Positions 6,472 through 53,182 of a DNA stretch of 64,000 nt are shown here, one piece after another. Source of the stretch: Kordiimonas pumila (GTDB taxonomy: Bacteria; Pseudomonadota; Alphaproteobacteria; Sphingomonadales; Kordiimonadaceae). Location of the stretch: NCBI RefSeq assembly GCF_015240255.1, contig NZ_CP061205.1, positions 620,001-684,000 of the forward strand, read 5' to 3'. A model generated the notes under the pieces. The model saw only the letters and a program-made list of their open reading frames with translations, had not been told where the DNA came from and made no database searches. The position numbers were made by a program, and so were the translations under genes. Within the stretch, counting starts at the first letter, position 1. The number at the start of each line of letters is the position of its first letter.

Positions 6472-7391
6472 ATGAATGCAGATGAAAAAGAAATACGCCG
6501 CAAGCTCCGTGTCATAGAACGGGCTCAAGATGTAGGCATTGCCGCAAAGGCATATCGCTATTTTGGGATACCAAAATCAACATACTATCGATGAAGAAAG
6601 CGGTATCTGGAGCAAGGGGAAAAGGCGCTGATTAACCGGAAGCCAATTGCGAACTCTCACCCCAACAAGACACCCGATGAAATCGTTGAGAAAATCCTTT
6701 ATCTCCGCAAAAAGTATCATCTCGGTCCCTTGAGGATCATGTGGTATATGGCGCGCTATCATCAGCTAAAAGTCTCGGATGCAACCATATCTCGCGTATT
6801 GAAGCGACGCGGTGTCAATCGATTACCGAACAATGTCGGACGCAGGAAGGTCCATACAAAGCGATACGAAAAACAGGTGCCGGGCCACCACATTCAGATG
6901 GATGTTAAGTTTCTGGTATTCAAAGGGAAAGATGGCAACAAGATTAAACGATACCAATATACGGCTATTGATGATGCAACGCGTGTTCGAGCTTTGAAGG
7001 TCTATACGTGTCACACGCAGAAGAATGCTATCAACTTTGTTAATCACATCATCAACAAGTTTCCATTCAAAGTACAGCAAATCAGGACAGATAGAGGGCA
7101 TGTTCGCGAAGCAGACGTTTACGTCAATTTCAGGCCAAATTCCATTGGCATGTTGAAGACTTGGGTATTCGACACGTTTACATCAAAGCCAGAACACCGC
7201 AGCTAAATGGCAAGGTCGAAAGGTCACATCGATCTGATGAGCAAGAGTTTTACCAGCTGATGACCTACAAGGATGATGTCGACCTGGAAGAAAAATTAGC
7301 TGAACGGGAAGCCTTTTATAACTTTACAAGACCCCATGGGGCACATGGTGGAAAAACCCCCTATGAATCCCTCAGAGAAAAGCTAATATGA
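6472..7391 (+). pseudogene. DDE transposase, inactivated by nonsense codon and frameshift
   Basis: From ATG 6472 the reading frame gives an N-terminal HTH ending STYYR, then TGA at 6592-6594 where the family has Trp (YYRWKKRY), a probable TGG to TGA change. The same frame continues with the integrase core (QMDVKFLVFKG holds the first Asp, QIRTDRG the second). It then loses phase near 7100. The last part, GIRHVYIKARTPQLNGKVERSH with the catalytic Glu and the NFTRPHGAHGGKTPYE tail, lies one frame over and ends at 7391. Compared with the usual GHEFQAKFHWHVED segment there appear to be about 23 extra bases between GGGCAT (7098) and TTTCAGGCC. The gene cannot make a full transposase without suppression and frameshifting. 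Confidence 0.85.
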
Positions 7392-7462: not shown

Positions 7463-8161
7463 TCAAACATCGAAACGCCACATTGTAGCCTCTACAGGAA
7501 CTTCGTCTTGCAATACGTCCCAATGCTCAGCTAACTTGCCATCTTTAACCCTGAATATATCTACAACAATTTGAGGCTTGTTAGCCCAACCGCGGATGCG
7601 GCCATGGATGGCAACAAAATCTCCTTCAGCTATCATTAAGCCGGGTTCGTAATAAACATCTTTCGGCAAGTTTTTTACGACTTCCTTTATTCCGTCACGG
7701 CCTTGAGAAATATTAGGGTTATGCTGAATATAATCGGGCGATATTAGACGGTCTACCTTTGCTACATCGTGTTTTTGGAATAATGAAATCATAGAGTCGA
7801 AGACAATCGCCTTATTACGATGTGGACGATCATCAAAAGCGCGATCGGCGGGACGTGTAATCTCGAAGGTTCCTGTCCCGCGCAAAAATTGGCCGTTCGG
7901 TAAGGTCGCGTATGAATGAATTAAACCGCGATCAAAATCTTGAATGTTTGTAACGGTTGAACCATCCTCCTCCTGCCAGCTCACCACGAATATACTACTG
8001 CCGAGCGGCACAACTTGTATATCCACGATCTCAATGCGGACATATGGCCCGTCCTTGATCTCGAACTTCAATTGCGCATCTGATATTAACGCCAGATAGA
8101 CTTGAAAATCCGGATAGGCCACATCCATTTCTAATCCAACTGGAAAACCTTCTATCGTCAT
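7463..8161 (-). CDS. MoaF-like/SnoaL-like two-domain protein
   Basis: I place the start at ATG 8161 (232 residues). It has an AAGGA ribosome site nine bases upstream, better than the TTG two codons earlier. Residues about 5-105 resemble the MoaF/lipocalin-like beta-barrel (AQLKFEIKDG, SIFVVSWQEEDGSTVT, DFDRGLIHSYATLPNG). Residues about 110-232 are an NTF2-fold SnoaL-like domain, with DYIQHNPNISQGRDG and VVDIFRVKDGKLAEHWDVLQ typical of the family. Function is not known; such proteins often bind small hydrophobic ligands or act as cyclases or isomerases. It lies 46 bp downstream of the YcaC-like gene on the same strand. A perfect 25-bp inverted repeat brackets its ribosome site and start codon. 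Confidence 0.75.
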   Translation of the reverse strand: MTIEGFPVGLEMDVAYPDFQVYLALISDAQLKFEIKDGPYVRIEIVDIQVVPLGSSIFVVSWQEEDGSTVTNIQDFDRGLIHSYATLPNGQFLRGTGTFEITRPADRAFDDRPHRNKAIVFDSMISLFQKHDVAKVDRLISPDYIQHNPNISQGRDGIKEVVKNLPKDVYYEPGLMIAEGDFVAIHGRIRGWANKPQIVVDIFRVKDGKLAEHWDVLQDEVPVEATMWRFDV

Positions 8162-8205
8162 TCTCAAAGGTCCTTCTATTCGTTAATATCAGATGCGCAA
8201 TTGAA
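8067..8205 (-). repeat. Perfect 25-bp inverted repeat bracketing a start codon
   Basis: Positions 8067-8091 are the exact reverse complement of 8181-8205 (25 of 25; central part GCGCATCTGATATTAACG). They are separated by 89 bp. One arm is inside the MoaF/SnoaL-like coding sequence, codons about 24-32. The other is in the gap after the YcaC-like gene. In the minus-strand mRNA the ribosome site and ATG 8161 would sit in the loop of a very stable hairpin. Confidence 0.9.
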
Positions 8206-8207
8206 TA

Positions 8208-8861
8208 TTAATCCTCTGCCTTCGGCACCGGTGTATTGAGCAATTGTTGCTCCCACAGGAATGCGATACCACTGCCAGCCAGATGATCGATCATCACTTT
8301 CGTGATTGCTTCTGCGGTTTCTGTTCTTGCCCAATCACGCTGCCATTCAGCCAACACTGCAAACCAGGTCATCACATTTGCCCCAGCCCCTATCATCCGC
8401 TGTATCGCAACCTCATGAGCTTCTTTCGAAACACCGCCGCATGCATCTGTCACTACTGTTACGTCCCAACCTTCGCCAAGCGCCTGAATAACCGGCATCG
8501 CCACACAAATCTCTGTAAAGAGCCCTGCAATAATCAGCTGTTTACGGCCCGTCGCTTTCACTGCATCCACGACCTTTTTGTCTTCCCATGTATTGATGAA
8601 TGTACGGTCAATCACTTCTTGACCCGGGAAAACATCCGTGATTTGCGGGAAGATAAGACCACCACGATCAACAAGCACACTGGTTAAAATGGTCGGAACA
8701 TTGAAGGCCTTCGCCGCGTTAGCCAAACCTGCGGCTGCATTAACAGCCATATGCGGGTCATGACTATTAACATTGGTAAGCTGGAATGGTTGGTGATCAA
8801 TTAAAACCAGCACTGAATCTTCCGGGCGAAGTAGTGAGTCAAGGCCATTACGAGGTTTCAT
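8208..8861 (-). CDS. Isochorismatase-family hydrolase (YcaC-like)
   Basis: I place the start at ATG 8861 (217 residues) because AAAGGA lies seven bases upstream; an earlier GTG at 8882 has no better site. The protein matches the cysteine-hydrolase/isochorismatase fold. The catalytic Asp is in LVLIDHQPFQLTNV, a basic residue region follows in DRTFINTWEDKKVVDAV, and the nucleophile Cys is in AGLFTEICVAMP, preceded by the cis-peptide turn. Length and the C-terminal VMTWFAVLAEWQRDWARTET stretch fit the YcaC group (E. coli YcaC 208 residues), whose substrate is unknown. It is divergent from the LysR gene and probably regulated by it, and it is upstream of the MoaF/SnoaL-like gene in the same transcript. 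Confidence 0.88.
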   Translation of the reverse strand: MKPRNGLDSLLRPEDSVLVLIDHQPFQLTNVNSHDPHMAVNAAAGLANAAKAFNVPTILTSVLVDRGGLIFPQITDVFPGQEVIDRTFINTWEDKKVVDAVKATGRKQLIIAGLFTEICVAMPVIQALGEGWDVTVVTDACGGVSKEAHEVAIQRMIGAGANVMTWFAVLAEWQRDWARTETAEAITKVMIDHLAGSGIAFLWEQQLLNTPVPKAED

Positions 8862-8956
8862 GTTTAAATCCTTTTCTGCCACTATATGGGGCGTTTATTA
8901 CTGCACATAGAAAACACCAATGATGCTGTCCATGCGTAACATTGCATTCCCATAAT

Positions 8957-9011: not shown

Positions 9012-9923
9012 TTGGACATTGAAGAACTACATACATTTATAGAAGTTGCTCGTATAGCGAGTATTTCTGCGACCGCGCGGCGGCTTGGCGTGGCGAAATC
9101 CATTGTTAGCCGCCGGCTTTTAAAGCTTGAGAATGAACTTGGCGTTCAGCTTCTTTTGAGGACCACGCGAGGCGTAACCCTCACAGAAGCAGGGGCAACA
9201 TTTCAAGATCATGCTATGAAAATTGTAAACGAAATTGATACAGCCAGAGAAAGGATCCTACCCACGGGTGAATTATGTGGCAGCTTACGAATCGCTATGC
9301 CACTTACGTTTGGCCCGGATCAATTTGCGCCAGTACTTGCACAACTGGCACAAACCCACCCACAGCTCAGCATTTATTCCTCCTATACAGATCGTCATAT
9401 AGATCTCACGGCTGAAGGCTTTGATTGCGCTATCCGCCTTGGTCATCTTAAAGATTCAAACTTGATCGCGAAACGTATTGGGCCGATTTATGGAACGCTG
9501 GTCGCGAGCCCGGCCTATATTCAAGAGCATGGCGCACCAGAAACACCGGAAGAGCTGATCACCGACCACCAAGCCCTGATGCAAGGGACAGAAAGCTGGA
9601 AATTCATACGGGATGGGCAAATCATCTCGGTTAATCCACAAGGACGTTTTAAAGCGGATAACGGCACCGCATTGCTTGCTGCCGCAACCGCAGGACTTGG
9701 CGTTGCCTACCTACCAGATGGCCTAATATATGAATGTTTGACCTCAGGGACGCTTGTACCCGTTATGAAACGTTACCCGGTACCCCCATCTGGGGCATAT
9801 ATTGTGCGCCCACCGGGGCAACACCCCTCACGCAAAATAAAAGCCCTCACAGACATATTCATAAAGTTTTTTGAACAATCCCCACATCTTGCTTGCGATG
9901 CGTCTAATGAAACTGCCGAATAA
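9012..9923 (+). CDS. LysR-family transcriptional regulator
   Basis: A 303-residue protein starting at TTG 9012, with AGGA eight bases upstream. The winged HTH is at residues about 1-60 (LHTFIEVARIASISATARRLGVAKSIVSRRLLKLENELGVQLLLRTTRGVTLTEAG). The periplasmic-binding-like effector domain starts at about residue 90 (GSLRIAMPLTFGPDQFAPVLAQLAQTHP). The arrangement matches the CrgA/DsdC-like subgroup often linked to quinone or electrophile stress genes. It is divergent from the YcaC-like gene, with a palindrome between them, and precedes azoR, pirin and antiporter genes on its own strand. The effector is unknown. Confidence 0.92.
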   Translation: MDIEELHTFIEVARIASISATARRLGVAKSIVSRRLLKLENELGVQLLLRTTRGVTLTEAGATFQDHAMKIVNEIDTARERILPTGELCGSLRIAMPLTFGPDQFAPVLAQLAQTHPQLSIYSSYTDRHIDLTAEGFDCAIRLGHLKDSNLIAKRIGPIYGTLVASPAYIQEHGAPETPEELITDHQALMQGTESWKFIRDGQIISVNPQGRFKADNGTALLAAATAGLGVAYLPDGLIYECLTSGTLVPVMKRYPVPPSGAYIVRPPGQHPSRKIKALTDIFIKFFEQSPHLACDASNETAE

Positions 9924-28867: not shown

Positions 28868-29653
28868 TCAATCCTTTTTATGTGCGCTTGATGGCCCTGC
28901 CAGCTGTGCGCCGTCGATTACCAGTGCTGATCCGCTCATCATAGAGGCCTCTTCAGATGCCGCGAATAGAATGCTGTTTGCTATATCTTGGGGTGTTGCA
29001 ATTCTTCCCATCGGGACCAAGCTTGCCATGCCAGCTTTCATGGCCTCGCGGCTACCAATGGCATCTGCTACAGGGTCCAGCATTTCGCTATCAACGTATG
29101 TTGGGTGGATGGATATACAGCGGATAGGGAGGCCTTGTTCCGCACAGTAGAGAGCGACGGATTTGCTAAGTGTAGTTACACCGCCTTTAGACGCGCAGTA
29201 ACCAGCTACATCTGAAATGCCAACAAGGCCAGCAAGGGATGAAACATTTATGATCGCCCCATGCCCGTTAGTTTTGGTTATGGCGCGAATTGCAGCCTGA
29301 CACCCTAACATGACGCCGGTTAAATTGACGGCGATCATCTTATTCCATTCATCCATTTTTAGATCAAGGATAGTACCAGGGAAACCGATGCCAGCAATAT
29401 TTGCAAGAATGTCGACCCGACCAAATCTGTTTATTGTTTGGCTAACTGCATCAGCCCAACTTTGTTCACTTGTTACATCCAGACTAACAGGAATTGCCTG
29501 GTCGCCTATATTTTGTGCTGTTGCGTATGCGCCCTCGCTATTGATATCGCTTACAGCAACCGAGGCACCTTCGCGTGCAAACGTTATAGCGGTTGCGCGC
29601 CCGATGCCTGATGCTGCCCCAGTTACGATTGCTATCTTATCCTTAAGCCGCAC
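28868..29653 (-). CDS. Short-chain dehydrogenase/reductase (SDR), first in operon
   Basis: I choose GTG 29653 (261 residues; VRLKDKIAIVTG) because GGTGGGAG lies nine bases upstream; the open frame up to 29713 gives non-family sequence. It has TGAASGIG (cofactor loop), an acidic residue after the second strand (AVSDINSEG, NAD preference), NIAGIGFPG, catalytic Ser in INVSSLAGL, YCASKGG (Tyr and Lys), and MSGSALVIDGAQ. It is the first gene of the SDR-SDR-VOC operon, transcribed from the region holding a perfect 20-bp inverted repeat and divergent from the cupin/ligase pair. Two different SDRs side by side suggest successive redox steps or stereochemical inversion. Confidence 0.92.
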   Translation of the reverse strand: MRLKDKIAIVTGAASGIGRATAITFAREGASVAVSDINSEGAYATAQNIGDQAIPVSLDVTSEQSWADAVSQTINRFGRVDILANIAGIGFPGTILDLKMDEWNKMIAVNLTGVMLGCQAAIRAITKTNGHGAIINVSSLAGLVGISDVAGYCASKGGVTTLSKSVALYCAEQGLPIRCISIHPTYVDSEMLDPVADAIGSREAMKAGMASLVPMGRIATPQDIANSILFAASEEASMMSGSALVIDGAQLAGPSSAHKKD

Positions 29654-29724
29654 AAATAAACACTCCCACCTACAACTTCGTTCTGAGCTAATAAAAGCAA
29701 GCATAAGGCTCATGCTAGGGTGGG

Positions 29725-29779
29725 GAAATAGCGGGAACCACTCAACCGTGGGCTTTGCCTGAGTGGTTCCCGCTATTTC
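29725..29779. repeat. Perfect 20-bp inverted repeat in a divergent promoter
   Basis: Positions 29725-29744 (core GCGGGAACCACTCA) and 29760-29779 (core TGAGTGGTTCCCGC) are exact complements over 20 bp with a 15-bp spacer. It lies between the divergent SDR operon (start 29653) and cupin gene (start 29835). It could be an operator for a dimeric regulator, such as the LuxR-type protein of the module, or a stable RNA hairpin in a leader. Confidence 0.85.
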
Positions 29780-29834: not shown

Positions 29835-30314
29835 ATGGCTACACTCACAAAAAACGTAAATGCAGATATTGTTCAAACTAGTCTGCACCGGAAAGCCTTT
29901 TTTGATATCAATGACTTGCCTTGGCTTGATTGGGTTATGGAAGAAACGTGGTTTAAGCTATTAAACCTGAACCCGTTTACTGGTGGCTTCACAATGTTAT
30001 TGAAAGTTGGGCCGAATAATACGGCCCCTGTTCATGGGCATGTTGGGTCAGTGGAAGGTATATTGTTGGAAGGTGGGTTTGGCTACGGTGAGGATCGTGG
30101 GCGCGCTGGTTGGTATGTACGTGAGCCCGGCGGTATTCACCACATTCCAGATACAGACGCTGATGGCATGGTTATGTTCGCCACAGTGAATGGGCCTCTT
30201 GTTGGTTATAATGAAGATGGCAGCGTCGCTATTGTGGTTGATGCAAAGCTTATGTACGAGATGGCATTGGCTGGGAATGCTGCAGATCATATCGATAAAC
30301 CGATTGACTGGTAG
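29835..30314 (+). CDS. Cupin protein, 2,4'-dihydroxyacetophenone dioxygenase-like
   Basis: A 159-residue single cupin protein; GGAAAG precedes ATG 29835 closely. LLKVGPNNTAPVHGHVGSVEGILLEGGFGY provides the two His and Glu ligands of cupin motif 1, and WYVREPGGIHHIPDTDADGM those of motif 2. The overall pattern, with the N-terminal FFDINDLPWLDWVMEETWFKLLNLNPFTGGFTML, matches the ChrR-like/2,4'-dihydroxyacetophenone dioxygenase group, which cleaves a C-C bond with oxygen and one non-haem iron. The true substrate here is unknown. An acyl-CoA ligase follows nine bases later; cleavage to an acid and then CoA activation would be a sensible order. Confidence 0.8.
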   Translation: MATLTKNVNADIVQTSLHRKAFFDINDLPWLDWVMEETWFKLLNLNPFTGGFTMLLKVGPNNTAPVHGHVGSVEGILLEGGFGYGEDRGRAGWYVREPGGIHHIPDTDADGMVMFATVNGPLVGYNEDGSVAIVVDAKLMYEMALAGNAADHIDKPIDW

Positions 30315-39648: not shown

Positions 39649-42600
39649 ATGGCGACTTTGACCGTAACGACCAATAGCGATACTGGCGCTGACAGCACGC
39701 TTGATACAGACTTTGCAACCGATATGACTGATGGTGGTGGCCTTTCTATTCGGGAGGCGATTGGCAGGGCATCAAGCGGGGATACAATCACCTTTGACCT
39801 TGATAGCGGAACAGCTGGGGCGCAGGGCGGCACCATTACGCTTGGGGGCAGCGCTCTCGCTATATCTACGAACCTGATAATTGATGGTGATTTGGATGAT
39901 GATGGCACGCCGGACGTTACGTTTGATGCGGATGGCAATAGCCGGACTGTTGTGATTAGTGGCAGTGATGTAACCCTGCACGGTTTAACCGTTACTGGTG
40001 GGTCTGGCAGTGGCGGCGGCACAGTGAACCAGGGCGGCGGCATTCATTCCAGCACAAGCGGCACTTTAACAATCACCAACAGCATCATTACGGGGAACAC
40101 AACAACAAACGGCGGCGGTGGTATCTATAAGTTCGGTGGCAGCCTTGTGATAACAGATTCTCTCATTTCAGGTAATTCGGCCATGTATGGGGGCGGTATA
40201 CGCAGTGTAGGGGCCACAAACACATTTACACGCGCAACTATTACCGGAAATTCGGCCGATTTTGTTGGCGGGGCAGAACTCAGGAGTTCGGTAGCTGGTT
40301 CATCTTTCACGAACACGACAATAAGTGGCAATGTGAACACCAGCGCCTCCCCATATGGGGATGAGCTTAGGGTTCGTTCGGGTGAAGTAACCATTTCTGA
40401 CAGTATCATTGGTAGCACGAACGCAACATCGAGCCCTAACATTGGTAGTTCACTGTCTGGTGGCATTACATTCAGTGGCACGGTTTTGTTAACCGAGGCT
40501 TTCACGCCAGTGTCTGGCAGTGGCACGGTTGATACGCCTGCTAATATTTTTGCGTCTACAGAAGCAGTAACGGTGGGCGGCGTTAGCACAACGCGTGGGG
40601 TACTTGCAGATAATGGCGGCGTTGTTCAGAGCATGGCGGTTGCATCTGGTGTATCAGCAGGCGCTAGCCCGACTTTAGCGATCACGAATACAGCCCCCAG
40701 GCTTGATACGAACAATGATACACCGCTGGATTATACAGAGAATGGTTGGTATGCACAGCTTGTGGGCGGGACACTCATTGATGATGACGGTGACGCCGAC
40801 TGGGACGGCGGCACTTTGGTGGTGCAAATTACCGGCAATGCAGAAACGGCTGATGAGGTTAGTTTAGCTCGCACTGAGGTTATTTCAATTGTAGGTACGG
40901 ATGTTTTTTCCAACAGTACCAATATTGGTACTGTATCTGTGGCAGCGGTTTCGAACCATAGTACAGTCACGGGCGATACAGCACTCACCATTACATTTAA
41001 CAGCAATGCTACTAATACCAATGTTGAATGGGTTCTACGCAGTATTCAGTATCAAAATTCATCTGATGACCCAAGCACGGATGACCGAACGGTTACTATT
41101 ACAGCAACGGATGCTCATGGCGCCTCCACAGTAGGCACCCGCACCATTGAGGTCACCGCAGTTGAGGATGGACCCACGATTACCATAATGGGGGAAGACC
41201 CAACATTTACAGAAGACGGTGGTGCGGTCGCGATTTTTTCGGGGGCAGATATCAGCACTGTTGAAGCCGGCCAAACGATCACGGGGTTCGGTTTATATGT
41301 GACAAATGTATCAGACGGGGCGGATGAAATCCTGGCCGTAGACGGAACAGATATTACCCTTACAGTCGGTACGAGTGGTACCACAGCAAACAATAGCCTT
41401 ACATACAGTGTGTCTACATCTGGCAGTGGCGTACGGGTGGATTTTTCAGACGGCACGTTGTCAGAGGCCCAGATAAACACGGTGATGGACGGTGTTACTT
41501 ACCGTAATGATAGTGACACGCCCACCACAACGGACACACGCGTTATCAACTTTTCTGATATTGCTGATACCGGTGAGACAACAAGCAGTGGCGGCGAAAC
41601 GGAGGTCACCGTTGTGGCAGCGAATGACGCGCCGACAGCTACAAATAGCAGCCCACTGATTGATGAAGAAGACGGCGCATATGCGCTAACCGTTGCGGAT
41701 TTCAATTTCTCTGACGTTGACGGAGACAGCTTCAGTTCTGTAAGAATTGATTCGCTGGCAACGGTAGATGGCAGCTTCCAGCTTTCGGGCGTTGATGTGG
41801 AGGCAGGTGACATTATTCAGGCGTCAGATATTGTGGCGGGTAACCTGACATTTACACCGGAAAATGTTGTGGACCCGGATAATGGATCAGGTGTTCTGCT
41901 TGAATTTACCCACAGTGTGAATGATGGCACCACTTTTGCCGCAAGCCCGGCCCGTATGCAGATTGAGGTAAGCTTTTTTAATGACGCTCCGACAGCGACC
42001 GGCATGCCGTCTGACCTTGAGGTAGATATTGAAACAAAGTCTGATATTGACCTCTCTGACATTGCCTTTGCAGATGCAGACAGTACCAGCATTACGGTAA
42101 CACTATCGGTTGATACAGGTGACCTGTATTACACGCCTTCTGATCTCAAGATTAGAATAGCCACTGATAGCGACGCTCAAAACAAAGGTGGAGAGCAGGA
42201 GGCAGGATCCTATATCACCCTAACTGGTTCAATTTCTGATATTCATACTTACCTCTCTGACCCTTCCAGCATTCAATATATCAGTGCAGACGGCGTAACC
42301 GGCAATGATGCCGCCACGCTGACAATTTCAGGTGGCAGCGGCCGAGAATCTGTGTCTCTCGGCACTATCAATCTGGATATCGGCACGATTAATACCAATC
42401 ACACACCGACAGGCCTGACCCTGAGTAATAGCGCTATTAAAGAAAATGTAGCAGGCGGCACGGTTGGTACTGTTTCCGCAACAGACCCTGATGGAGACAG
42501 TATCACATACAGTGTTTCTGATAGCCGGTTTGAGATTGTTGGCACCACCTTAAAGTTGAAAGATGCAGCCAGCCTTGATTATGAAACCGAGAGCAGTATT

Positions 42601-43458
42601 CGTGTTTCCATTAAAGCGACAGACAGCCACGGAGCTAGTTTTACCAAAGGCTTTACGATATCTGTGACGGATGTAGGCGAACATACGACCTCTGATGATG
42701 CAGATACCGTGACAGGGGGTGATGAAGACGATCTTGTGTCCTCGGGTGGGGGTGATGACCGTATCACCACAGGGAATGGCCGTGACACGATTGACGGCGG
42801 TGACGGGGATGACGATGTCTCAGGCGGTAATGATGATGACAGTATAGACGGCGGTGCTGGCTCAGATACAGTTGATGGGGGTTCAGGTCGGGATACCCTG
42901 AAGGGTGGGGACGGTGATGACACAGTTATGGCGGGCGGTGATGATGACCTTGTTTTTGCCGGGCTTGGGGACACTGGTAATGATAAAGTGAACGGCGATA
43001 GCGGCGATGATACCATAGGCGGCGGTGCCGGAAATGACGATTTGAACGGTGATGACGGTGATGACCTTGTGTGGGGTGGCTCAGGTAATGATAGGGTTAG
43101 CGGCGGTACAGGGGACGATTTAATTTATAACGGGGATGGCAGTGATGATATCACGGGCGGCGCCGGTAATGATACCCTTTGGGCGGGTGCTGGCGATGAT
43201 GTTCTCACCGGCGGCACAGGTGCTGATACGTTTGTGTTTGGTGCGGTTGCAGGGAATGACACAATCACTGACTTTGATGTAAGCGAGGACAGCCTGTCAT
43301 TTATGGCGATCACGGGCTTTGCCAGTGCTGCCGAGGTTATTGCAGCAGCAAGTGAAGTGGATAGTAGTGTACTGATTGACCTGGGCGACGGTGAAAGCAT
43401 CCTGCTTTCTGGCCTGACACTCGCAGAACTTAATACAGCATCCATGACGTTCGGATAG
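39649..43458 (+). CDS. Large RTX/cadherin-like surface or secreted protein
   Basis: A 1269-residue acidic, Cys-free repeat protein. Residues about 1-300 carry the LSIREAIGRASSGDTITFD signature and parallel beta-helix repeats (ITNSIITGNTTTNGGGGIY, ITDSLISGNSAMYGGGI). Residues about 300-1010 are cadherin/VCBS-like domains (AVEDGPTIT, AANDAPTATNSS, SFFNDAPTATGMPSDLEV, ISVTDVGEHTT). Residues about 1017-1195 are RTX calcium-binding nonapeptides (GGxGxDxxx, for example GGSGNDRVSGGTGDDLIYNG). The last 70 residues (DTFVFGAVAGNDTITDFD onward) are the type-I secretion C-terminus. It is expected to be exported by a type-I system that is absent here, and to fold outside with Ca2+. AAAGGA precedes ATG 39649. 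It resembles the 46.3-53.2 kb protein in helix, cadherin and RTX parts. Confidence 0.88.
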   Translation: MATLTVTTNSDTGADSTLDTDFATDMTDGGGLSIREAIGRASSGDTITFDLDSGTAGAQGGTITLGGSALAISTNLIIDGDLDDDGTPDVTFDADGNSRTVVISGSDVTLHGLTVTGGSGSGGGTVNQGGGIHSSTSGTLTITNSIITGNTTTNGGGGIYKFGGSLVITDSLISGNSAMYGGGIRSVGATNTFTRATITGNSADFVGGAELRSSVAGSSFTNTTISGNVNTSASPYGDELRVRSGEVTISDSIIGSTNATSSPNIGSSLSGGITFSGTVLLTEAFTPVSGSGTVDTPANIFASTEAVTVGGVSTTRGVLADNGGVVQSMAVASGVSAGASPTLAITNTAPRLDTNNDTPLDYTENGWYAQLVGGTLIDDDGDADWDGGTLVVQITGNAETADEVSLARTEVISIVGTDVFSNSTNIGTVSVAAVSNHSTVTGDTALTITFNSNATNTNVEWVLRSIQYQNSSDDPSTDDRTVTITATDAHGASTVGTRTIEVTAVEDGPTITIMGEDPTFTEDGGAVAIFSGADISTVEAGQTITGFGLYVTNVSDGADEILAVDGTDITLTVGTSGTTANNSLTYSVSTSGSGVRVDFSDGTLSEAQINTVMDGVTYRNDSDTPTTTDTRVINFSDIADTGETTSSGGETEVTVVAANDAPTATNSSPLIDEEDGAYALTVADFNFSDVDGDSFSSVRIDSLATVDGSFQLSGVDVEAGDIIQASDIVAGNLTFTPENVVDPDNGSGVLLEFTHSVNDGTTFAASPARMQIEVSFFNDAPTATGMPSDLEVDIETKSDIDLSDIAFADADSTSITVTLSVDTGDLYYTPSDLKIRIATDSDAQNKGGEQEAGSYITLTGSISDIHTYLSDPSSIQYISADGVTGNDAATLTISGGSGRESVSLGTINLDIGTINTNHTPTGLTLSNSAIKENVAGGTVGTVSATDPDGDSITYSVSDSRFEIVGTTLKLKDAASLDYETESSIRVSIKATDSHGASFTKGFTISVTDVGEHTTSDDADTVTGGDEDDLVSSGGGDDRITTGNGRDTIDGGDGDDDVSGGNDDDSIDGGAGSDTVDGGSGRDTLKGGDGDDTVMAGGDDDLVFAGLGDTGNDKVNGDSGDDTIGGGAGNDDLNGDDGDDLVWGGSGNDRVSGGTGDDLIYNGDGSDDITGGAGNDTLWAGAGDDVLTGGTGADTFVFGAVAGNDTITDFDVSEDSLSFMAITGFASAAEVIAAASEVDSSVLIDLGDGESILLSGLTLAELNTASMTFG

Positions 43459-45740: not shown

Positions 45741-46261
45741 GGGGCTGTCTCTTGTGTGAAGTGTTCTTGGGCGTGATACCTAAAGTGGATTATCTGTAAA
45801 GTTATTGATGCTGCGGGGCAGTATATTTCGGTCGCATATTATGATCTTTCGTACAAGAAAATATTAAAATGCCGCCTTGTTACTGCCTTTAAAACTGGCA
45901 TAGAATTTCCGGCTAATTGTGCGGAAACAAGGGGGGATAGTATATGCCCGTCACGCCTGAAGGTTGTTTTGATTAAATAATCAATAAGGGGTGGTAATTC
46001 TTTTTTAAGCTATGTAATCTAAACGTAATTGGGGGCTTAAATTGCCTGAAAATATAAACTATTTTCTAGTGTGTTATAAAAGCAGCGCACAACCTATGGT
46101 TTTTTAATAAAAATAGATAGTGAAAAGTGCCGATTACATAGTGAACCCACCATCTCGGAAAATGCAAAGCCTTCTAACGGCGATACCCGAATAAATAGCA
46201 ACAACCCCTATAGTGACCCAAGGCTTTTGTCAGTCTTGTCAGTACAGTGAAGAGACATTTT
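45741..46261. other. AT-rich intergenic region upstream of the giant RTX gene
   Basis: About 520 bp with no gene or RNA I can support. It is strongly AT-rich compared with both neighbours and holds the promoters of the divergent GST and RTX genes. Confidence 0.5.
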
Positions 46262-49200
46262 ATGCATTATGAACGGAACGATCAGGACAGTCAAAATTGT
46301 TCAATACTTTCTTTAGATAAAGATGCCTTTTCTGTAGGTGGTGGGCGACAGGCACTGATTGTTGATTCGTCGGTGCAGGACGCTGCCATTCTATGTGGCA
46401 GCCTTCCTGATCACATGGATGTATATATCGCCCAGCCGGGTGGGCTTAACGCCCTGATCAGCGAACTGGAAGCAAGCGGGCATATTGGCAACCTGCATAT
46501 TCTAACCCACGGTGAACCGGGCGCGATCACGCTTGCGGGCGAACGGCTGGATGCTGGTGCACTCAAGGCTTCTCACCCTTTCTCTGCTGTCATCAAACAC
46601 TTGACGCATGCAGGTTCGAAAATCGCACTTTGGGCTTGCTCAGTTGCTGATGGGGCGAAAGGAGAACATTTTGTAAAGGCACTTGAGGCGCTGACGGGCG
46701 CGCCGGTTTTTGCCGCTGATAAACTGGTTGGTTCATTGGTATCTGGCGGTACATGGGATATAGGCACCACCCCGCCCTTTAGCCAAAAATCGTTGGCGAG
46801 CTACCCACACACGCTGCCAACATTTGACATGACTGGCGGCACGCTCGGTACCGCCAGCGGTGCCGACAGCATCGCCGACAACCAGTTTCAGGAAACGGAA
46901 AGCGGTGTGACGATGACCGTTTCCTTTGATCTGGGTGGCGCAACGTTAGAAGATGATGTGTTTCTCGATAATATTACAGCACAGGATATTGTTGGGGACT
47001 ACCTTTATGCTGATAATGGTAATACAGTCACAACTGTAACTGTCAGTTTTGATACCGCAGTGAGCATAGATTCTTTTGTCTTCGGCATCATTGATGGTGA
47101 CGTTGACGGCACCTATACGGTTACACCGAATTCCGGCTCTACCCTTACAATAACAGCACCAGGTGATTTCACTAACAGTGCAACACATATGGAAAGCCCA
47201 AGCGATTGGACAAATGTTACCAGCTTTACTATCACAAGCTCAAACGGTCAGTGGGCCCCACTGATGGACAGCGTTGTCTTTTCTGTTGCCAACAACGCCC
47301 CCGCGCTTGGTGGTACGCCGGCTGATGATACGGCGGTTGAGGATGTTGCAACAGCGATCGATCTTTCCGCCTATAATGTATCAGACGCCGATGGTGACAC
47401 AATCACCCTGACGCTGGGGGTGGACCGGGGCACGATTGCATCTGTGGACGGTAACGGCACAACAGACGGCGTGACCATTGCCACCTCTGGCACTACGTCT
47501 ATGACCCTGCAGGGCACGGCTGCCAACCTGAATACCTATCTGAACGATACATCGCACATTGAGTATACAACAGACAGCAACGACACCACATCAGCAACGC
47601 TGACCGTTACACCAAACGACGGTACGGAGGACGGCACCGCCGACACTGTTACCATCAATATTACCTCTGTGAATGATGCACCAACCCTGACAGCCACAGG
47701 CAATGATCCTGCCTTCACTGAGGGTGGTTCAGCCGTTGACCTGTTCAGCAGTGTGGCACTCTCCACCGTAGACGGTGGCGGTGTTGCCGGATACACGATA
47801 ACGGTTACCAATGTAACAGATGGTGCAGATGAAATTATTAATGCAGACGGCGTTGATATTCTACTAACAAACGGTGATACAGGCACCCTGAACGGCGGCA
47901 CCATTACCTATACCGTTTCCGTGTCTGGCACGACAGCCACTATCGACTTTGTGGATTCAAGCGGTTCCCCTGGAGCAAACCAGATAATTTTGGAAGGCCT
48001 GAAATACGAAAACACAAGCGAGGACCCCACAGCGGGTGCGCGTGTTATCACAATTACCAGCCTCAGTGATGACGGCGGCACCGCAAACGGCGGGGTTGAT
48101 ACAACAGTGCTCTCGCTGGCGTCAACGGTGACGGTGGCAGCTGTTAATAATGACCCAAGCGCCAGCGGTGTTCCAACTGATGTGACGGTGGTTGAGGATA
48201 CTGCGAGTGACCTTGATCTGTCAGCGGTTAGCTTTGCTGATGTGGACAGCGCAGGCAGCGTGACAGTTACCTTGACAGTAGGCACCGGCACGATGGCTGC
48301 GAGCAGTGGTGGCAGTGTGACAGTTGGTGGCTCTGGCACGGGCACAATGACCCTGACAGGCACGATTGCGAATATCAACACCTATCTGGATACCGCTTCG
48401 AACATCCAGTATACGGGGGCATCCAATGCTAGCGGCGATGATGCGACCACGCTCGGTATCACCGTCAACGACGGTGATGGTTCCGGCGATGTGAGTGTTG
48501 GTACGGTTAACATTGATATTACCGCTGTTGCGGACACCTTCACTGTGACCACGATACTTGATAATGGGGATGATACAACTCTGGGTGCTGATTTGGCCGC
48601 TGATATTGCTGATGGTGGCGGCCTGTCGCTTCGGGAAGCTATTGGTTACGCAGGGGCTGGTGATACGATCACTTTCGATGCCGGCCTTTCTGGTGGCACC
48701 ATTCTCCTGAATGGTGAACTTTCTATCACCACCGACATCACCATTGATGGTGATGTGGATGCAGACGACAAGGCCGATATCACGATTAATGGCAATGATA
48801 TTAGCCGGGTGTTCAATATCTCGGGTGGCACCAGCACGCTGCAATCCCTGACCATTTCACATGGTGCTGTCACCGGTAACGGCGGTGCGATCCTGATCTC
48901 GGGGGCCTCCACGGATGTGACCATCGATAGCTCCACGATTTCGGACAGCGAGGCCTCCAGTCGGGGAGGCGGCATTTATGTCGATGATTTGGCTAATATG
49001 TCGCTAACCAACAGCCTTGTCACCGGCAACGAGGCCGAATATGGCTCGGTGGTTGTTGTCGGTACCGCGACCATCGACAATACGACAATTGCCTACAACA
49101 CAGCCGATGGCATTGCTGGCCTGCATGTCCTTGGTACCGGGACAGCCGGGGCTGTTGCAGATGTTACTAATGTCACCCTGACCGGTAACCGGGAAACCGG

Positions 49201-52200
49201 GTTCAACGGCTTTGAAGAAATTTTAGCGGAAGGCAACATCCGGACCGCCACCATTAATGTGACGGACAGTATCATCGCCAACACAGGCGGCGGCACCAAC
49301 ATCCTGAATGCTGGTACGATCAACTTCTCCGGCACCGTCATTGTCAGCGAGGCATTTACCCCCAGTAGTGGCTCTGCAACTGTTATATCTTCTCTGACAG
49401 ACATTTTCGCTAGCACTGCCAGCAATGGTAGCGTGACCGGAGGCACCTTGGCGGATAACGGCCAAGTGGTACAATCTGTTCTGGTTACTGGAGATGCTGT
49501 AGGCTTCGGTGCCTATCCGAACGCTTTACCAACTGCGAGCGGTGTGCCGTCTGATGTAACGGTAACAGAAGATACCGCGAGTGACCTTGACCTGTCGGCT
49601 GTAACGTTTGCTGATGTTGATAGCGCGGGCAGCGTGACAGTTACCTTGACAGTAGGCACCGGTACGATGGCGGCAAGTAGCGGCGGCAGTGTTACGGTTG
49701 GTGGTTCTGGCACGGGCACAATGACCCTGACGGGCACGATTGCGAACATCAACACCTACCTCGATACCGCTTCGAACATCCAGTATACAGGTGCCGCGAA
49801 CGTGAGCGGCGATGATGCGACCACAATCGACATTACCATTAATGATGGTGATGGTTCAGGCGATGTGAGTGTTGGTACGGTTAACATCGATATTACAGCA
49901 GTGAATGATGCCCCGACGATTACGGGGCTTGTCTCTGACCTGACGGTAACAGAGGATGTTGCCAGCGACCTTGACCTGTCGGCTGTAACGGTTGCTGATA
50001 TTGACGGTGATGAACTCACTGTCACACTGGATATCAGTGGGGGTACGTTCAGTGCGCCGATTAACGGCGTTTCTATTGAAGAGACCCTTGTGGACAGCGA
50101 CACCATCACACTGGTGGGAACTGCGGCAGATATTAATACATATCTGGATACCGCGTCGAACATTCAGTACACGGGGGCGTCTAACGTAAACGGCGATGAT
50201 GCTGCCACCCTTACTGTTACCGTCAGTGACGGTACGCTCAGTGATAATGATACCGCAAACATCGACATCACTGTGGTGAATGACGACCCGACTGCGACTG
50301 GGCTACCAAGTGATATTACCGTTACGGAAGACACGGCATCAGACGTGGACCTGTCTGCCACCAACTTCAGCGATATAGACAGTGCCAGCCTTACGGTAAC
50401 GCTGACCCTTGATGACGGTACCTTTGGTACTCCGGCGGACGGCGCCGGTGTGGGCGGCGGTGTCACTGAAACGCTGGTAAACAGCACAACAATCACCCTT
50501 GTCGGTGCTGCGGATGATATCGATACCTACCTCGATACCGCATCGAACATTCAGTATACCGGGGCTGCGGATGTGAGCGGCGATGACGTGGCCACCATCA
50601 CGGTCACTGCCAACGACGGAGACGGCTCTGGCGACGTGGCAATCGGCACTGTCAACATTGACATCACCAATGTCAATGATGCACCAACAGCAACTGGGTT
50701 GCCAGCAACGGTCACTTTCACTGAAGATGCTTCATATCCTACCCTAGACCTATCATCCCTAAGCCTGACGGATGTTGATACGACAGGCGATGTAACAATA
50801 ACACTCACGGCAGTAAACGGTACTTTGGGTGCTAGTATAGTGGGCGGCGTTACGTCTATATATGTATCCGCTGGAGTGCGACAGCTTGTAGGTACTATTG
50901 ACGAGCTTAACACGTACCTGGATGGTGGCAATGTTGCGTATAACCCTGTTGCAAATGCCAGTGGCGATAATGCTGATACGATCACCGTTACCATCAATGA
51001 CGGAAATGGTTCTGGTGATGTCACGATTGGTACGATCAGTGTTAATCTTACGGCAGTGAATGACGACCCGACTGCGACTGGGCTACCAAGTGATATTACC
51101 GTTACGGAAGATACGGCATCAGACGTGGACCTGTCTGCCATCAACTTCAGCGATATAGACAGTGCCAGCCTTACGGTAACGCTGACCCTTGATGACGGTA
51201 CCTTTGGCACGCCTGCGGACGGCGCCGGTGTGGGCGGCGGTGTCACTGAAACGCTGGTAAACAGCACAACAATCACCCTTGTCGGTGCTGCGGATGATAT
51301 CGATACCTACCTCGATACCGCATCGAACATTCAGTATACCGGGGCTGCGGATGTGAGCGGCGATGACGTGGCCACCATCACGGTCACTGCCAACGACGGC
51401 GACGGCTCTGGCGACGTGGCAATCGGCACTGTCAACATTGACATCACCAATGTCAATGATGCTGCCACCTTTGGCGGCGCACTTTCAGTCAGCGTCGATG
51501 AAGACGCCACCTATTCGATCGGCGACACAGCCACAGTCTCTGATGTGGACCCTGGTGAGGGTACGTTCACGGCAGAGACTGTCAACGGCACGTACGGAGA
51601 CCTTACAATCGCCTCCAACGGTGACTGGTCATATGACCTTGATGAGACTTTGGATGCTGTACAGAGCCTGGCAGATCCGGGGGATACCCTTACAGACACT
51701 CTGACCGTCACCAGCGACGATGGTACGGAACAAGATATCGCCATCACCATCACTGGGGTGAATGATGCCCCGACTTCTACGGGGGCTACGGTTACCCTGC
51801 TTGAAGATACAGTGCATGCCTTCACTGTTGCCAACTTTGCCTTTAGCGATGTTGATACCGGTGATACGCTTACCAGTGTACGGATTGATAGCCTGACACT
51901 GGCCTCTGGGGATACATTGCAGCTATCTGGCGTGAATGTGACAGCCGGTCAGGTTATTGCAGTTGCGGATATTACCGGCGGTAACCTTGTTTACACCCCT
52001 GCGCCAGACGCAAATGGCCTGGCACTCTCGAGCTTCACTTACAGTGTGAACGACGGTACAGCCTTTGCGGCAGCACCGTCTAGCTTCACCCTGAATGTGA
52101 CGGATGTGGCAGATAATGCGGCCCCTACCAACCTGAACCTGAGCAATGCTTCGATTAACGAGAATGTTGTGGGCGGTGTTATTGGTACACTTTCTGCGAT

Positions 52201-53182
52201 TGAGCCGGACGGCGAAAGCATCACATTCGGCACATCAGACAGCCGGTTTGAAGTTGTGGGTACAACGCTGAAGCTGAAAGCTGGTGTTAGCCTTGACTAT
52301 GAAGAAACCAGCAGCATACAGATCGGCGTAACCGCGTCTGACCCGGCTGGGGCAACCCATACCCGCTTCTTTACCATCACGGTTAATGACGTCGGCGAAC
52401 ACACCACAACTGAGGGCGCTGATACCATTACCGGCGGCAGTGAAAATGACTTTGTATCCTCTGGTGGCGGCGATGACCGTATCATCACAAATGACGGTAG
52501 AGATACGATTGACGGCGGTGCCGGTAATGATGATATCTCTGGCGGCAATGATGATGATTGGGCGACCGGTGGCACCGGCGACGATACTGTGTCTGGCGGG
52601 TCGGGCGAAGACACCCTGTTTGGCGGTGAAGGCAACGATCTTGTTATGGCAGGCGACGATGATGACCTTGTCTATGCTGGTGCAGGTGATGATGGTGACG
52701 ACCTTGTTGAAGGCAGCGACGGTAACGACAGCCTTGGCGGCGGTGCAGGCAATGATAACCTGCAAGGCGGCGACGGTAATGATGTGCTGTGGGGCCGTGC
52801 TGGCAGCGACACGCTCGAAGGCGGCGCAGGCGATGACGTGCTCTATAACGGCGCTGGAAGCGACACTGTCCTTGGGGGCAGTGGTAACGATACCATATGG
52901 GCCAGTGCGGGCGATGATGTCCTCACTGGTGGTAGCGGGGCAGACGTCTTTATCTTTGGCAGCAATTCCGGCAATGACACCGTTACCGACTTCGATACTT
53001 CTGAGGATATCCTCAACCTGTCGTTTACGGGCTTTAGCACCCTTGATGAGGTAACGGCTGCTACCACAGCAACCGAGGTTGACGGTGCAAACGGCATCCT
53101 AATTACGATTGACGCCAATGAAAGCATCTTCCTGATCGGGCTTTCTGTCGATGATCTGAATAGCGCTACTATGATTTTATAG
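46262..53182 (+). CDS. Giant DUF4347/cadherin/RTX surface protein
   Basis: About 2306 residues from ATG 46262 (GAAGAGA six bases upstream); an in-frame GTG lies 15 bp earlier at 46247. The N-terminal DUF4347 domain (residues about 25-185: ALIVDSSVQDAAILCGSL, HILTHGEPGAITLAGE, IALWACSVADGAKGEHFVKALEALTG) is typical of long bacterial adhesins. A run of cadherin/VCBS-like domains follows, with an inserted beta-helix section at about 770-1090 opening with LSLREAIGYAGAGDTITFD. RTX repeats at about 2055-2235 include GGSGEDTLFGGEGNDLVMAG. A type-I secretion tail ends SVDDLNSATMIL. It is probably a secreted or cell-surface Ca2+-dependent adhesin. Some internal repeats are about 98% identical in DNA. 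No type-I exporter genes are in the window. Confidence 0.88.
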   Translation: MHYERNDQDSQNCSILSLDKDAFSVGGGRQALIVDSSVQDAAILCGSLPDHMDVYIAQPGGLNALISELEASGHIGNLHILTHGEPGAITLAGERLDAGALKASHPFSAVIKHLTHAGSKIALWACSVADGAKGEHFVKALEALTGAPVFAADKLVGSLVSGGTWDIGTTPPFSQKSLASYPHTLPTFDMTGGTLGTASGADSIADNQFQETESGVTMTVSFDLGGATLEDDVFLDNITAQDIVGDYLYADNGNTVTTVTVSFDTAVSIDSFVFGIIDGDVDGTYTVTPNSGSTLTITAPGDFTNSATHMESPSDWTNVTSFTITSSNGQWAPLMDSVVFSVANNAPALGGTPADDTAVEDVATAIDLSAYNVSDADGDTITLTLGVDRGTIASVDGNGTTDGVTIATSGTTSMTLQGTAANLNTYLNDTSHIEYTTDSNDTTSATLTVTPNDGTEDGTADTVTINITSVNDAPTLTATGNDPAFTEGGSAVDLFSSVALSTVDGGGVAGYTITVTNVTDGADEIINADGVDILLTNGDTGTLNGGTITYTVSVSGTTATIDFVDSSGSPGANQIILEGLKYENTSEDPTAGARVITITSLSDDGGTANGGVDTTVLSLASTVTVAAVNNDPSASGVPTDVTVVEDTASDLDLSAVSFADVDSAGSVTVTLTVGTGTMAASSGGSVTVGGSGTGTMTLTGTIANINTYLDTASNIQYTGASNASGDDATTLGITVNDGDGSGDVSVGTVNIDITAVADTFTVTTILDNGDDTTLGADLAADIADGGGLSLREAIGYAGAGDTITFDAGLSGGTILLNGELSITTDITIDGDVDADDKADITINGNDISRVFNISGGTSTLQSLTISHGAVTGNGGAILISGASTDVTIDSSTISDSEASSRGGGIYVDDLANMSLTNSLVTGNEAEYGSVVVVGTATIDNTTIAYNTADGIAGLHVLGTGTAGAVADVTNVTLTGNRETGFNGFEEILAEGNIRTATINVTDSIIANTGGGTNILNAGTINFSGTVIVSEAFTPSSGSATVISSLTDIFASTASNGSVTGGTLADNGQVVQSVLVTGDAVGFGAYPNALPTASGVPSDVTVTEDTASDLDLSAVTFADVDSAGSVTVTLTVGTGTMAASSGGSVTVGGSGTGTMTLTGTIANINTYLDTASNIQYTGAANVSGDDATTIDITINDGDGSGDVSVGTVNIDITAVNDAPTITGLVSDLTVTEDVASDLDLSAVTVADIDGDELTVTLDISGGTFSAPINGVSIEETLVDSDTITLVGTAADINTYLDTASNIQYTGASNVNGDDAATLTVTVSDGTLSDNDTANIDITVVNDDPTATGLPSDITVTEDTASDVDLSATNFSDIDSASLTVTLTLDDGTFGTPADGAGVGGGVTETLVNSTTITLVGAADDIDTYLDTASNIQYTGAADVSGDDVATITVTANDGDGSGDVAIGTVNIDITNVNDAPTATGLPATVTFTEDASYPTLDLSSLSLTDVDTTGDVTITLTAVNGTLGASIVGGVTSIYVSAGVRQLVGTIDELNTYLDGGNVAYNPVANASGDNADTITVTINDGNGSGDVTIGTISVNLTAVNDDPTATGLPSDITVTEDTASDVDLSAINFSDIDSASLTVTLTLDDGTFGTPADGAGVGGGVTETLVNSTTITLVGAADDIDTYLDTASNIQYTGAADVSGDDVATITVTANDGDGSGDVAIGTVNIDITNVNDAATFGGALSVSVDEDATYSIGDTATVSDVDPGEGTFTAETVNGTYGDLTIASNGDWSYDLDETLDAVQSLADPGDTLTDTLTVTSDDGTEQDIAITITGVNDAPTSTGATVTLLEDTVHAFTVANFAFSDVDTGDTLTSVRIDSLTLASGDTLQLSGVNVTAGQVIAVADITGGNLVYTPAPDANGLALSSFTYSVNDGTAFAAAPSSFTLNVTDVADNAAPTNLNLSNASINENVVGGVIGTLSAIEPDGESITFGTSDSRFEVVGTTLKLKAGVSLDYEETSSIQIGVTASDPAGATHTRFFTITVNDVGEHTTTEGADTITGGSENDFVSSGGGDDRIITNDGRDTIDGGAGNDDISGGNDDDWATGGTGDDTVSGGSGEDTLFGGEGNDLVMAGDDDDLVYAGAGDDGDDLVEGSDGNDSLGGGAGNDNLQGGDGNDVLWGRAGSDTLEGGAGDDVLYNGAGSDTVLGGSGNDTIWASAGDDVLTGGSGADVFIFGSNSGNDTVTDFDTSEDILNLSFTGFSTLDEVTAATTATEVDGANGILITIDANESIFLIGLSVDDLNSATMIL
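50276..50682 (+). repeat. 407-bp internal repeat, copy A (offset 780 bp to copy B)
   Basis: By direct comparison it differs from 51056-51462 at about six of 407 positions. Each copy encodes one domain (from DDPTATGLPSDITVTEDTAS to NIDITNVNDA). This indicates recent duplication or gene conversion inside the adhesin gene. Confidence 0.9.
51056..51462 (+). repeat. 407-bp internal repeat, copy B
   Basis: The partner of 50276-50682, with about 98.5% identity by eye. A less similar repeat pair encodes the SGVPxDVTV domain at about 48157-48530 and 49537-49900. Confidence 0.9.

What the first reader, a model, noticed from the sequence alone, without database searches (positions are those of the whole stretch)
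8067..8205. Perfect 25-bp inverted repeat with one arm in a gene and one arm before it, enclosing the start codon
25 of 25 bases match at a spacing of 89 bp; chance is negligible. In the mRNA of the YcaC-like/MoaF-SnoaL pair the ribosome site and ATG fall in the loop, so the stem could gate translation of the second gene or uncouple it from the first. Another explanation is a recent template-switch event that copied coding bases into the gap. No known element was recognised.
Basis: partly seen in the sequence, partly recalled or inferred. Interest (0 to 1): 0.62.

Follow-up and report, generated by a model that had tools for sequence, protein, structure and literature searches.

The report
Hairpin copied from a gene start
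A 25-base piece of a bacterial gene has been copied backwards into the short gap in front of that gene, most likely by a copying slip during DNA replication, giving the messenger RNA one long hairpin where related bacteria carry a different, self-contained hairpin.

Summary
The repeat is real: 25/25 complementary bases, 8067-8091 and 8181-8205, loop 89. It is the only spaced perfect repeat with arms of 14 nt or more in 464 kb sampled from this genome, and the arm occurs nowhere else in the genome. Relatives show its polarity. The moaF-like/SnoaL gene and its ycaC-like partner occur together in many proteobacteria. The coding arm aligns without gaps to conserved codons. No relative has an inverted repeat of 12 nt or more joining gap and gene.

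What it replaced is informative. Most relatives carry a self-contained hairpin a few bases after the ycaC stop codon; 7 of 9 pairs tested show compensatory changes, and Rfam had no match. The window lacks it. Its 46-nt gap is essentially the copied arm plus a moaF ribosome site resembling those of two relatives. The new stem makes the site about 3.6 kcal/mol harder to open, so translational dampening or RNase III processing is plausible but unproven. An invertible element or small transposon is not supported. The event is probably a one-off of a known mutational kind.

The parts
8181..8205 (-). Upstream (intergenic) arm, derived inverted copy; begins 3 nt after the ycaC-like stop codon
   Evidence: no counterpart in the gaps of 29 relatives (best 10-13/25 matches, the level of unrelated sequence)
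8067..8091 (-). Downstream (coding) arm, ancestral; parts of codons 24-32 of the MoaF-like/SnoaL gene (residues ALISDAQLK)
   Evidence: gap-free alignment with conserved S27 and L31 in 14 homologues; up to 19/25 nt identical in relatives
8092..8180 (-). 89-nt loop holding the SD (AGAAGGACC), the ATG at 8161-8159 and the first 23 codons
   Evidence: 'ATAGAAAGGACC' / 'GAATAAGGACC' at the same place in L006 and L034
8162..8207 (-). 46-nt intercistronic gap, shorter than in nearly all relatives and without their self-contained hairpin
7463..8161 (-). MoaF-like + SnoaL-like gene (232 aa)
   Evidence: PF22036 3.4e-23, PF12680 1.5e-14
8208..8882 (-). ycaC-like isochorismatase-family hydrolase gene
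   Evidence: PF00857 6.1e-26; nearest NCBIfam model YcaC, below its cut-off
9012..9923 (+). Divergent LysR-type regulator, a possible regulator of the pair (inference)
   Evidence: PF03466, PF00126

Best explanation
The inverted repeat is the footprint of a single replication template switch (or an equivalent snap-back copying event). About 25 nt of moaF codons 24-32 were copied in reverse complement into the spacer after ycaC, and in the same event or a linked one the older spacer with its own hairpin was lost. SHOWN by comparison: the coding arm is ancestral, the gap arm has no counterpart in any relative examined, and a conserved hairpin is absent here. INFERRED: the copying mechanism, and that insertion and loss were linked. 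In mRNA the arms should form a 25-bp stem starting 3 nt after the ycaC stop codon. Its most likely effects, both inferred, are to act as a new 3' stem for ycaC mRNA and RNase III substrate, and to lower moaF initiation modestly when the two genes are on one transcript. It may equally be a near-neutral scar.
For: 25/25 identity, single occurrence in the genome, and no other spaced perfect repeat in 464 kb. The coding arm aligns gap-free with homologues. No inverted repeat of 12 nt or more joins gap and gene in 18 relatives. Relatives have a covarying hairpin just after the ycaC stop (0/500 shuffles reach the observed pairing or covariation score, 7 of 9 pairs with double changes), found after ycaC with or without moaF (L116) and not in the window. 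Window gap alone folds with z +0.7, gap plus 110 nt of CDS with z -6.5. Arm duplex -38.5 kcal/mol; opening cost of SD/start 10.7 with the stem against 7.1-7.5 without. Template switching is documented as a one-step source of perfect stems (PMC8794818) and as a mutation mechanism in E. coli (PMC7202029, abstract).
Against: The nearest relatives are only about 70% identical in protein, so the ancestral gap and the switch points cannot be reconstructed. The coding arm is somewhat less conserved (56% nt identity on average) than the first 70 nt of the gene (about 67%), so some homogenisation in the other direction is not excluded. No expression or RNA data exist. That one transcript spans both genes is inferred from the 46-nt gap.
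Confidence: 0.72

Rival explanations
1. Selected translational gate: the long stem holds SD and ATG in a closed loop and represses moaF unless ribosomes finishing ycaC, or an RNA-binding protein or RNase, open it.
For: Stem is strong (z -6.8); predicted cost of exposing SD/start rises by about 3.6 kcal/mol; the stem begins 3 nt after the ycaC stop codon, within reach of a terminating ribosome.
Against: No relative has the stem. In the model a ribosome parked on the ycaC stop (first 12 nt after it masked) does not lower the opening cost, because the inner half of the stem remains (10.7 kcal/mol either way). No compensatory changes can be shown.
Confidence: 0.2
2. The new stem functionally replaces the conserved hairpin after ycaC (3'-end stabiliser or processing site that sets the ycaC:moaF ratio).
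For: The conserved hairpin sits within about 3-14 nt of the ycaC stop in relatives and covaries; here it is absent and a stronger stem begins at nearly the same place.
Against: The function of the conserved hairpin is unknown; some relatives (L017, L015, L115) fold no better than shuffled sequence there, so it seems dispensable.
Confidence: 0.25
3. Invertible DNA element (inverton): a recombinase flips 8067-8205 to switch moaF off and on.
For: Geometry fits: perfect 25-bp arms, short spacer, start codon inside. The flipped state would put stop codons upstream of the moaF frame.
Against: One arm is ordinary conserved coding sequence, not a dedicated site. No serine or tyrosine recombinase lies in the window; the nearest is about 26 kb away with an open frame of 572 aa. 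No other copy of the arm exists.
Confidence: 0.05
4. A 139-bp MITE or IS remnant whose terminal inverted repeats are the two arms.
For: An IS-type integrase-domain remnant lies close by at 6730-7391.
Against: The interior is the homologous N-terminus of MoaF; arms occur once each in the genome; flanking bases show no target duplication.
Confidence: 0.01

Closest known systems
Template-switch mutations creating RNA hairpins (Monttinen and Loytynoja 2022, PMC8794818)
   Same: A reverse-complement copy of nearby sequence yields a perfect stem in one step; loop sequence unchanged
   Different: Documented there for microRNA and rRNA genes; here one arm is protein-coding in a bacterial operon, and the event coincides with loss of a different conserved hairpin. 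Switch points not reconstructable
Quasipalindrome-associated template switching in E. coli (PMC7202029, abstract read)
   Same: Bacterial replication template switch at inverted repeats
   Different: That process perfects existing imperfect repeats; here no pre-existing repeat between gap and gene is seen in relatives
Intercistronic stem-loops and RNase III sites in bacterial operons (own knowledge, e.g. rpsO-pnp, malE-malF REP)
   Same: Stable stem between two cistrons just after a stop codon
   Different: The 3' arm lies inside the downstream CDS and the start codon is in the loop; no RNA evidence
Invertons / invertible promoters (e.g. PMC11892184, abstract read)
   Same: Short perfect inverted repeats flanking a small segment at a gene start
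   Different: No evidence of inversion, no dedicated recombinase, arm is ordinary coding sequence

Membership tests
Template-switch mutation footprint | Perfect local reverse-complement copy, improbable by chance | tested here: met
Template-switch mutation footprint | One copy ancestral, the other absent in relatives | tested here: met
Template-switch mutation footprint | Four switch points placed on a close ancestral sequence | tested here: inconclusive
   nearest relatives about 70% protein identity; gaps not alignable
Inverton | Both orientations seen in a population | not testable with these tools
   no reads available
Inverton | Cognate recombinase nearby and dedicated inverted-repeat sites | tested here: not met
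   no recombinase in window, nearest about 26 kb away; coding arm is homologous CDS
Conserved hairpin after the ycaC stop (relatives) | Match to covariance model R1 after the ycaC stop | tested here: not met
   no match in the window, while the post-ycaC site of some 21 relatives matches
Selected translational-control RNA structure | Conservation or covariation of the stem across species | tested here: not met
   no such stem in relatives
Known RNA family (Rfam 15) | Match at gathering score | tested here: not met

The most novel reading that the evidence does not exclude
A single mutation swapped a conserved intercistronic hairpin for a new, stronger stem that uses the next gene's coding sequence as its second arm, and the new stem took over the old one's role while adding control over moaF translation: a structure turnover that can be tested directly.
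Probability: 0.2. Interest if true: 0.55.

Novelty: new member of a known kind. Interest (0 to 1): 0.36.

Why it matters
It is a clean bacterial case in which comparison tells which arm of a perfect stem is the copy and what was lost. It suggests how long RNA stems can arise in one step inside operons. It also points to a conserved, covarying hairpin after ycaC-like genes in many proteobacteria that had no Rfam match in the loci scanned and may deserve an entry of its own.

Tried and rejected
RNAalifold on the MAFFT alignment of relatives' post-stop regions predicted no pairs; the named stem, counted on the same alignment, is well supported. The stem was read off this alignment, so control (b) leans towards it; the shuffle control does not. 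Searches of the genus, family, order and class gave no close relative: within the family only weak partial hits, and one good homologue in another family of the order. Exact arm in viral contigs and distant matches in phages: none. MITE/IS ends, dispersed repeat and operator readings rejected because the coding arm is homologous CDS and the arm is unique. Possible junction microhomology (ATAGA near both inner ends) seen by eye, too short to use.

Full report
OBSERVATION. The window holds a perfect 25-nt inverted repeat with arms at 8067-8091 and 8181-8205 and 89 nt between them. The two genes are on the minus strand: a ycaC-like isochorismatase-family gene (8208-8882) followed by a MoaF-like plus SnoaL-like gene (7463-8161). 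The gap is 46 nt. Read as mRNA it is: ycaC stop TAA, 3 nt, the 25-nt arm, then AATAGAAGGACCTTTGAGA, then ATG. The second arm covers parts of codons 24-32 of the MoaF-like gene. Chance is negligible: about 3e-8 expected perfect 25-mer pairs within 500 bp in 64 kb (own arithmetic), and in 464 kb of the same genome all other perfect repeats with arms of 14 nt or more have loops of 15 nt or less. The arm occurs nowhere else in the 4.04-Mb genome even with three mismatches.

POLARITY. Relatives of the MoaF-like protein at 50-71% identity, with a ycaC-like gene nearby, mostly just upstream, are found in Rhizobiales, Rhodobacterales, Azospirillum, Halomonas relatives, Xanthomonadaceae and others. In the genus, 18 other genomes gave no match or only weak partial ones; one good homologue (65%) lies in another family of the order. 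Horizontal acquisition is therefore likely (inference). The coding arm aligns without gaps to the homologous codons, with invariant S27 and L31, and matches relatives at up to 19 of 25 bases. The gap arm matches nothing in relatives' gaps (10-13 of 25, the level of unrelated sequence). No inverted repeat of 12 nt or more joins gap and gene in 18 relatives checked. The gap arm is therefore the derived copy. The bases that follow it resemble the ribosome-site spacer of L006 (ATAGAAAGGACC) and L034 (GAATAAGGACC), so the copy lies between the ycaC stop and the apparently ancestral SD region.

WHAT WAS LOST. In most relatives a self-contained hairpin begins a few bases after the ycaC stop codon, typically GGGGATGACG...CGTCATCCCC. 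Over 34 relatives the 80 nt after the stop fold better than shuffled sequence (mean z -2.2, several below -4; a few, such as L017 and L015, do not). On an alignment of 21 relatives, a 9-pair stem has 7 pairs with changes on both sides; 0 of 500 shuffles reach the observed percentage paired, number of double-change cells or covariation score, and a separate permutation of arms among sequences gives 0 of 10000. These controls do not remove relatedness. A covariance model built from those 21 sequences finds this hairpin after ycaC in essentially all of them (by construction), also where no moaF follows (L116), hardly anywhere else in the relatives' loci, and neither in the window nor in 400 kb of further sequence of this genome. 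No Rfam family matched in the loci scanned. The window's gap alone has no structure (z +0.7), whereas gap plus 110 nt of coding sequence folds at z -6.5. The locus thus lacks the conserved hairpin and has instead a stem that borrows its second arm from the next gene.

HOW IT AROSE (inferred). A replication template switch, copying about 25 nt of the nearby strand in reverse complement, explains a perfect, unique, local inverted copy with an unchanged loop. This mechanism is described as a one-step source of perfect stems (PMC8794818) and is studied in E. coli (PMC7202029). A hairpin already in the spacer could have stalled the fork and prompted the switch. The ancestral spacer cannot be aligned, so the switch points and the link between copying and loss remain unproven.

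WHAT IT MAY DO (inferred). The arm duplex is worth -38.5 kcal/mol, and the predicted cost of exposing the SD and start is 10.7 kcal/mol with the stem against 7.1-7.5 without it. A ribosome on the ycaC stop does not relieve this in the model. A perfect 25-bp stem is long enough for RNase III (own knowledge). Modest dampening of moaF, a cut between the cistrons, and protection of the ycaC 3' end are all plausible; none is shown. A neutral scar is equally compatible.

RIVALS. An inverton is not supported: no recombinase in the window, nearest about 26 kb away, and one arm is ordinary conserved CDS. A MITE is excluded by homology of the interior. A selected gate lacks any conservation of the stem.

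VERDICT. Real and well explained as to origin; function open. A new instance of a known mutational kind, made more interesting by the conserved hairpin it displaced.

Noticed in passing
L010:2853-2927, L018:2460-2530, L116:1637-1700 (minus) and about 18 further relatives: Conserved, covarying hairpin directly after the stop codon of ycaC-like genes in many proteobacteria, no Rfam match in the loci scanned; absent from the window's copy. Function unknown.
   Followed up: partly
window 6730-7391: Remnant of an IS transposase (rve and rve_3 integrase-core domains in two overlapping frames, apparently broken) right beside the MoaF-like gene; fits horizontal acquisition of the locus.
   Followed up: no
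window 29725-29779: Perfect 20-bp inverted repeat with a 15-nt loop in the space between divergent genes (short-chain dehydrogenase 28868-29713 minus, ChrR-type cupin 29835-30314 plus); possible operator, attenuator or terminator.
   Followed up: no
window 39649-43458 and 46247-53182: Two large RTX-repeat proteins with cadherin-like domains (1269 and 2311 aa), the longer with an N-terminal DUF4347; probably secreted surface or adhesion proteins.
   Followed up: no
L118:2550-3744: In Rhizobium sp. WL3 an extra NTF2-like gene lies between the ycaC-like and MoaF-like genes; several relatives with long gaps may share this arrangement.
   Followed up: no
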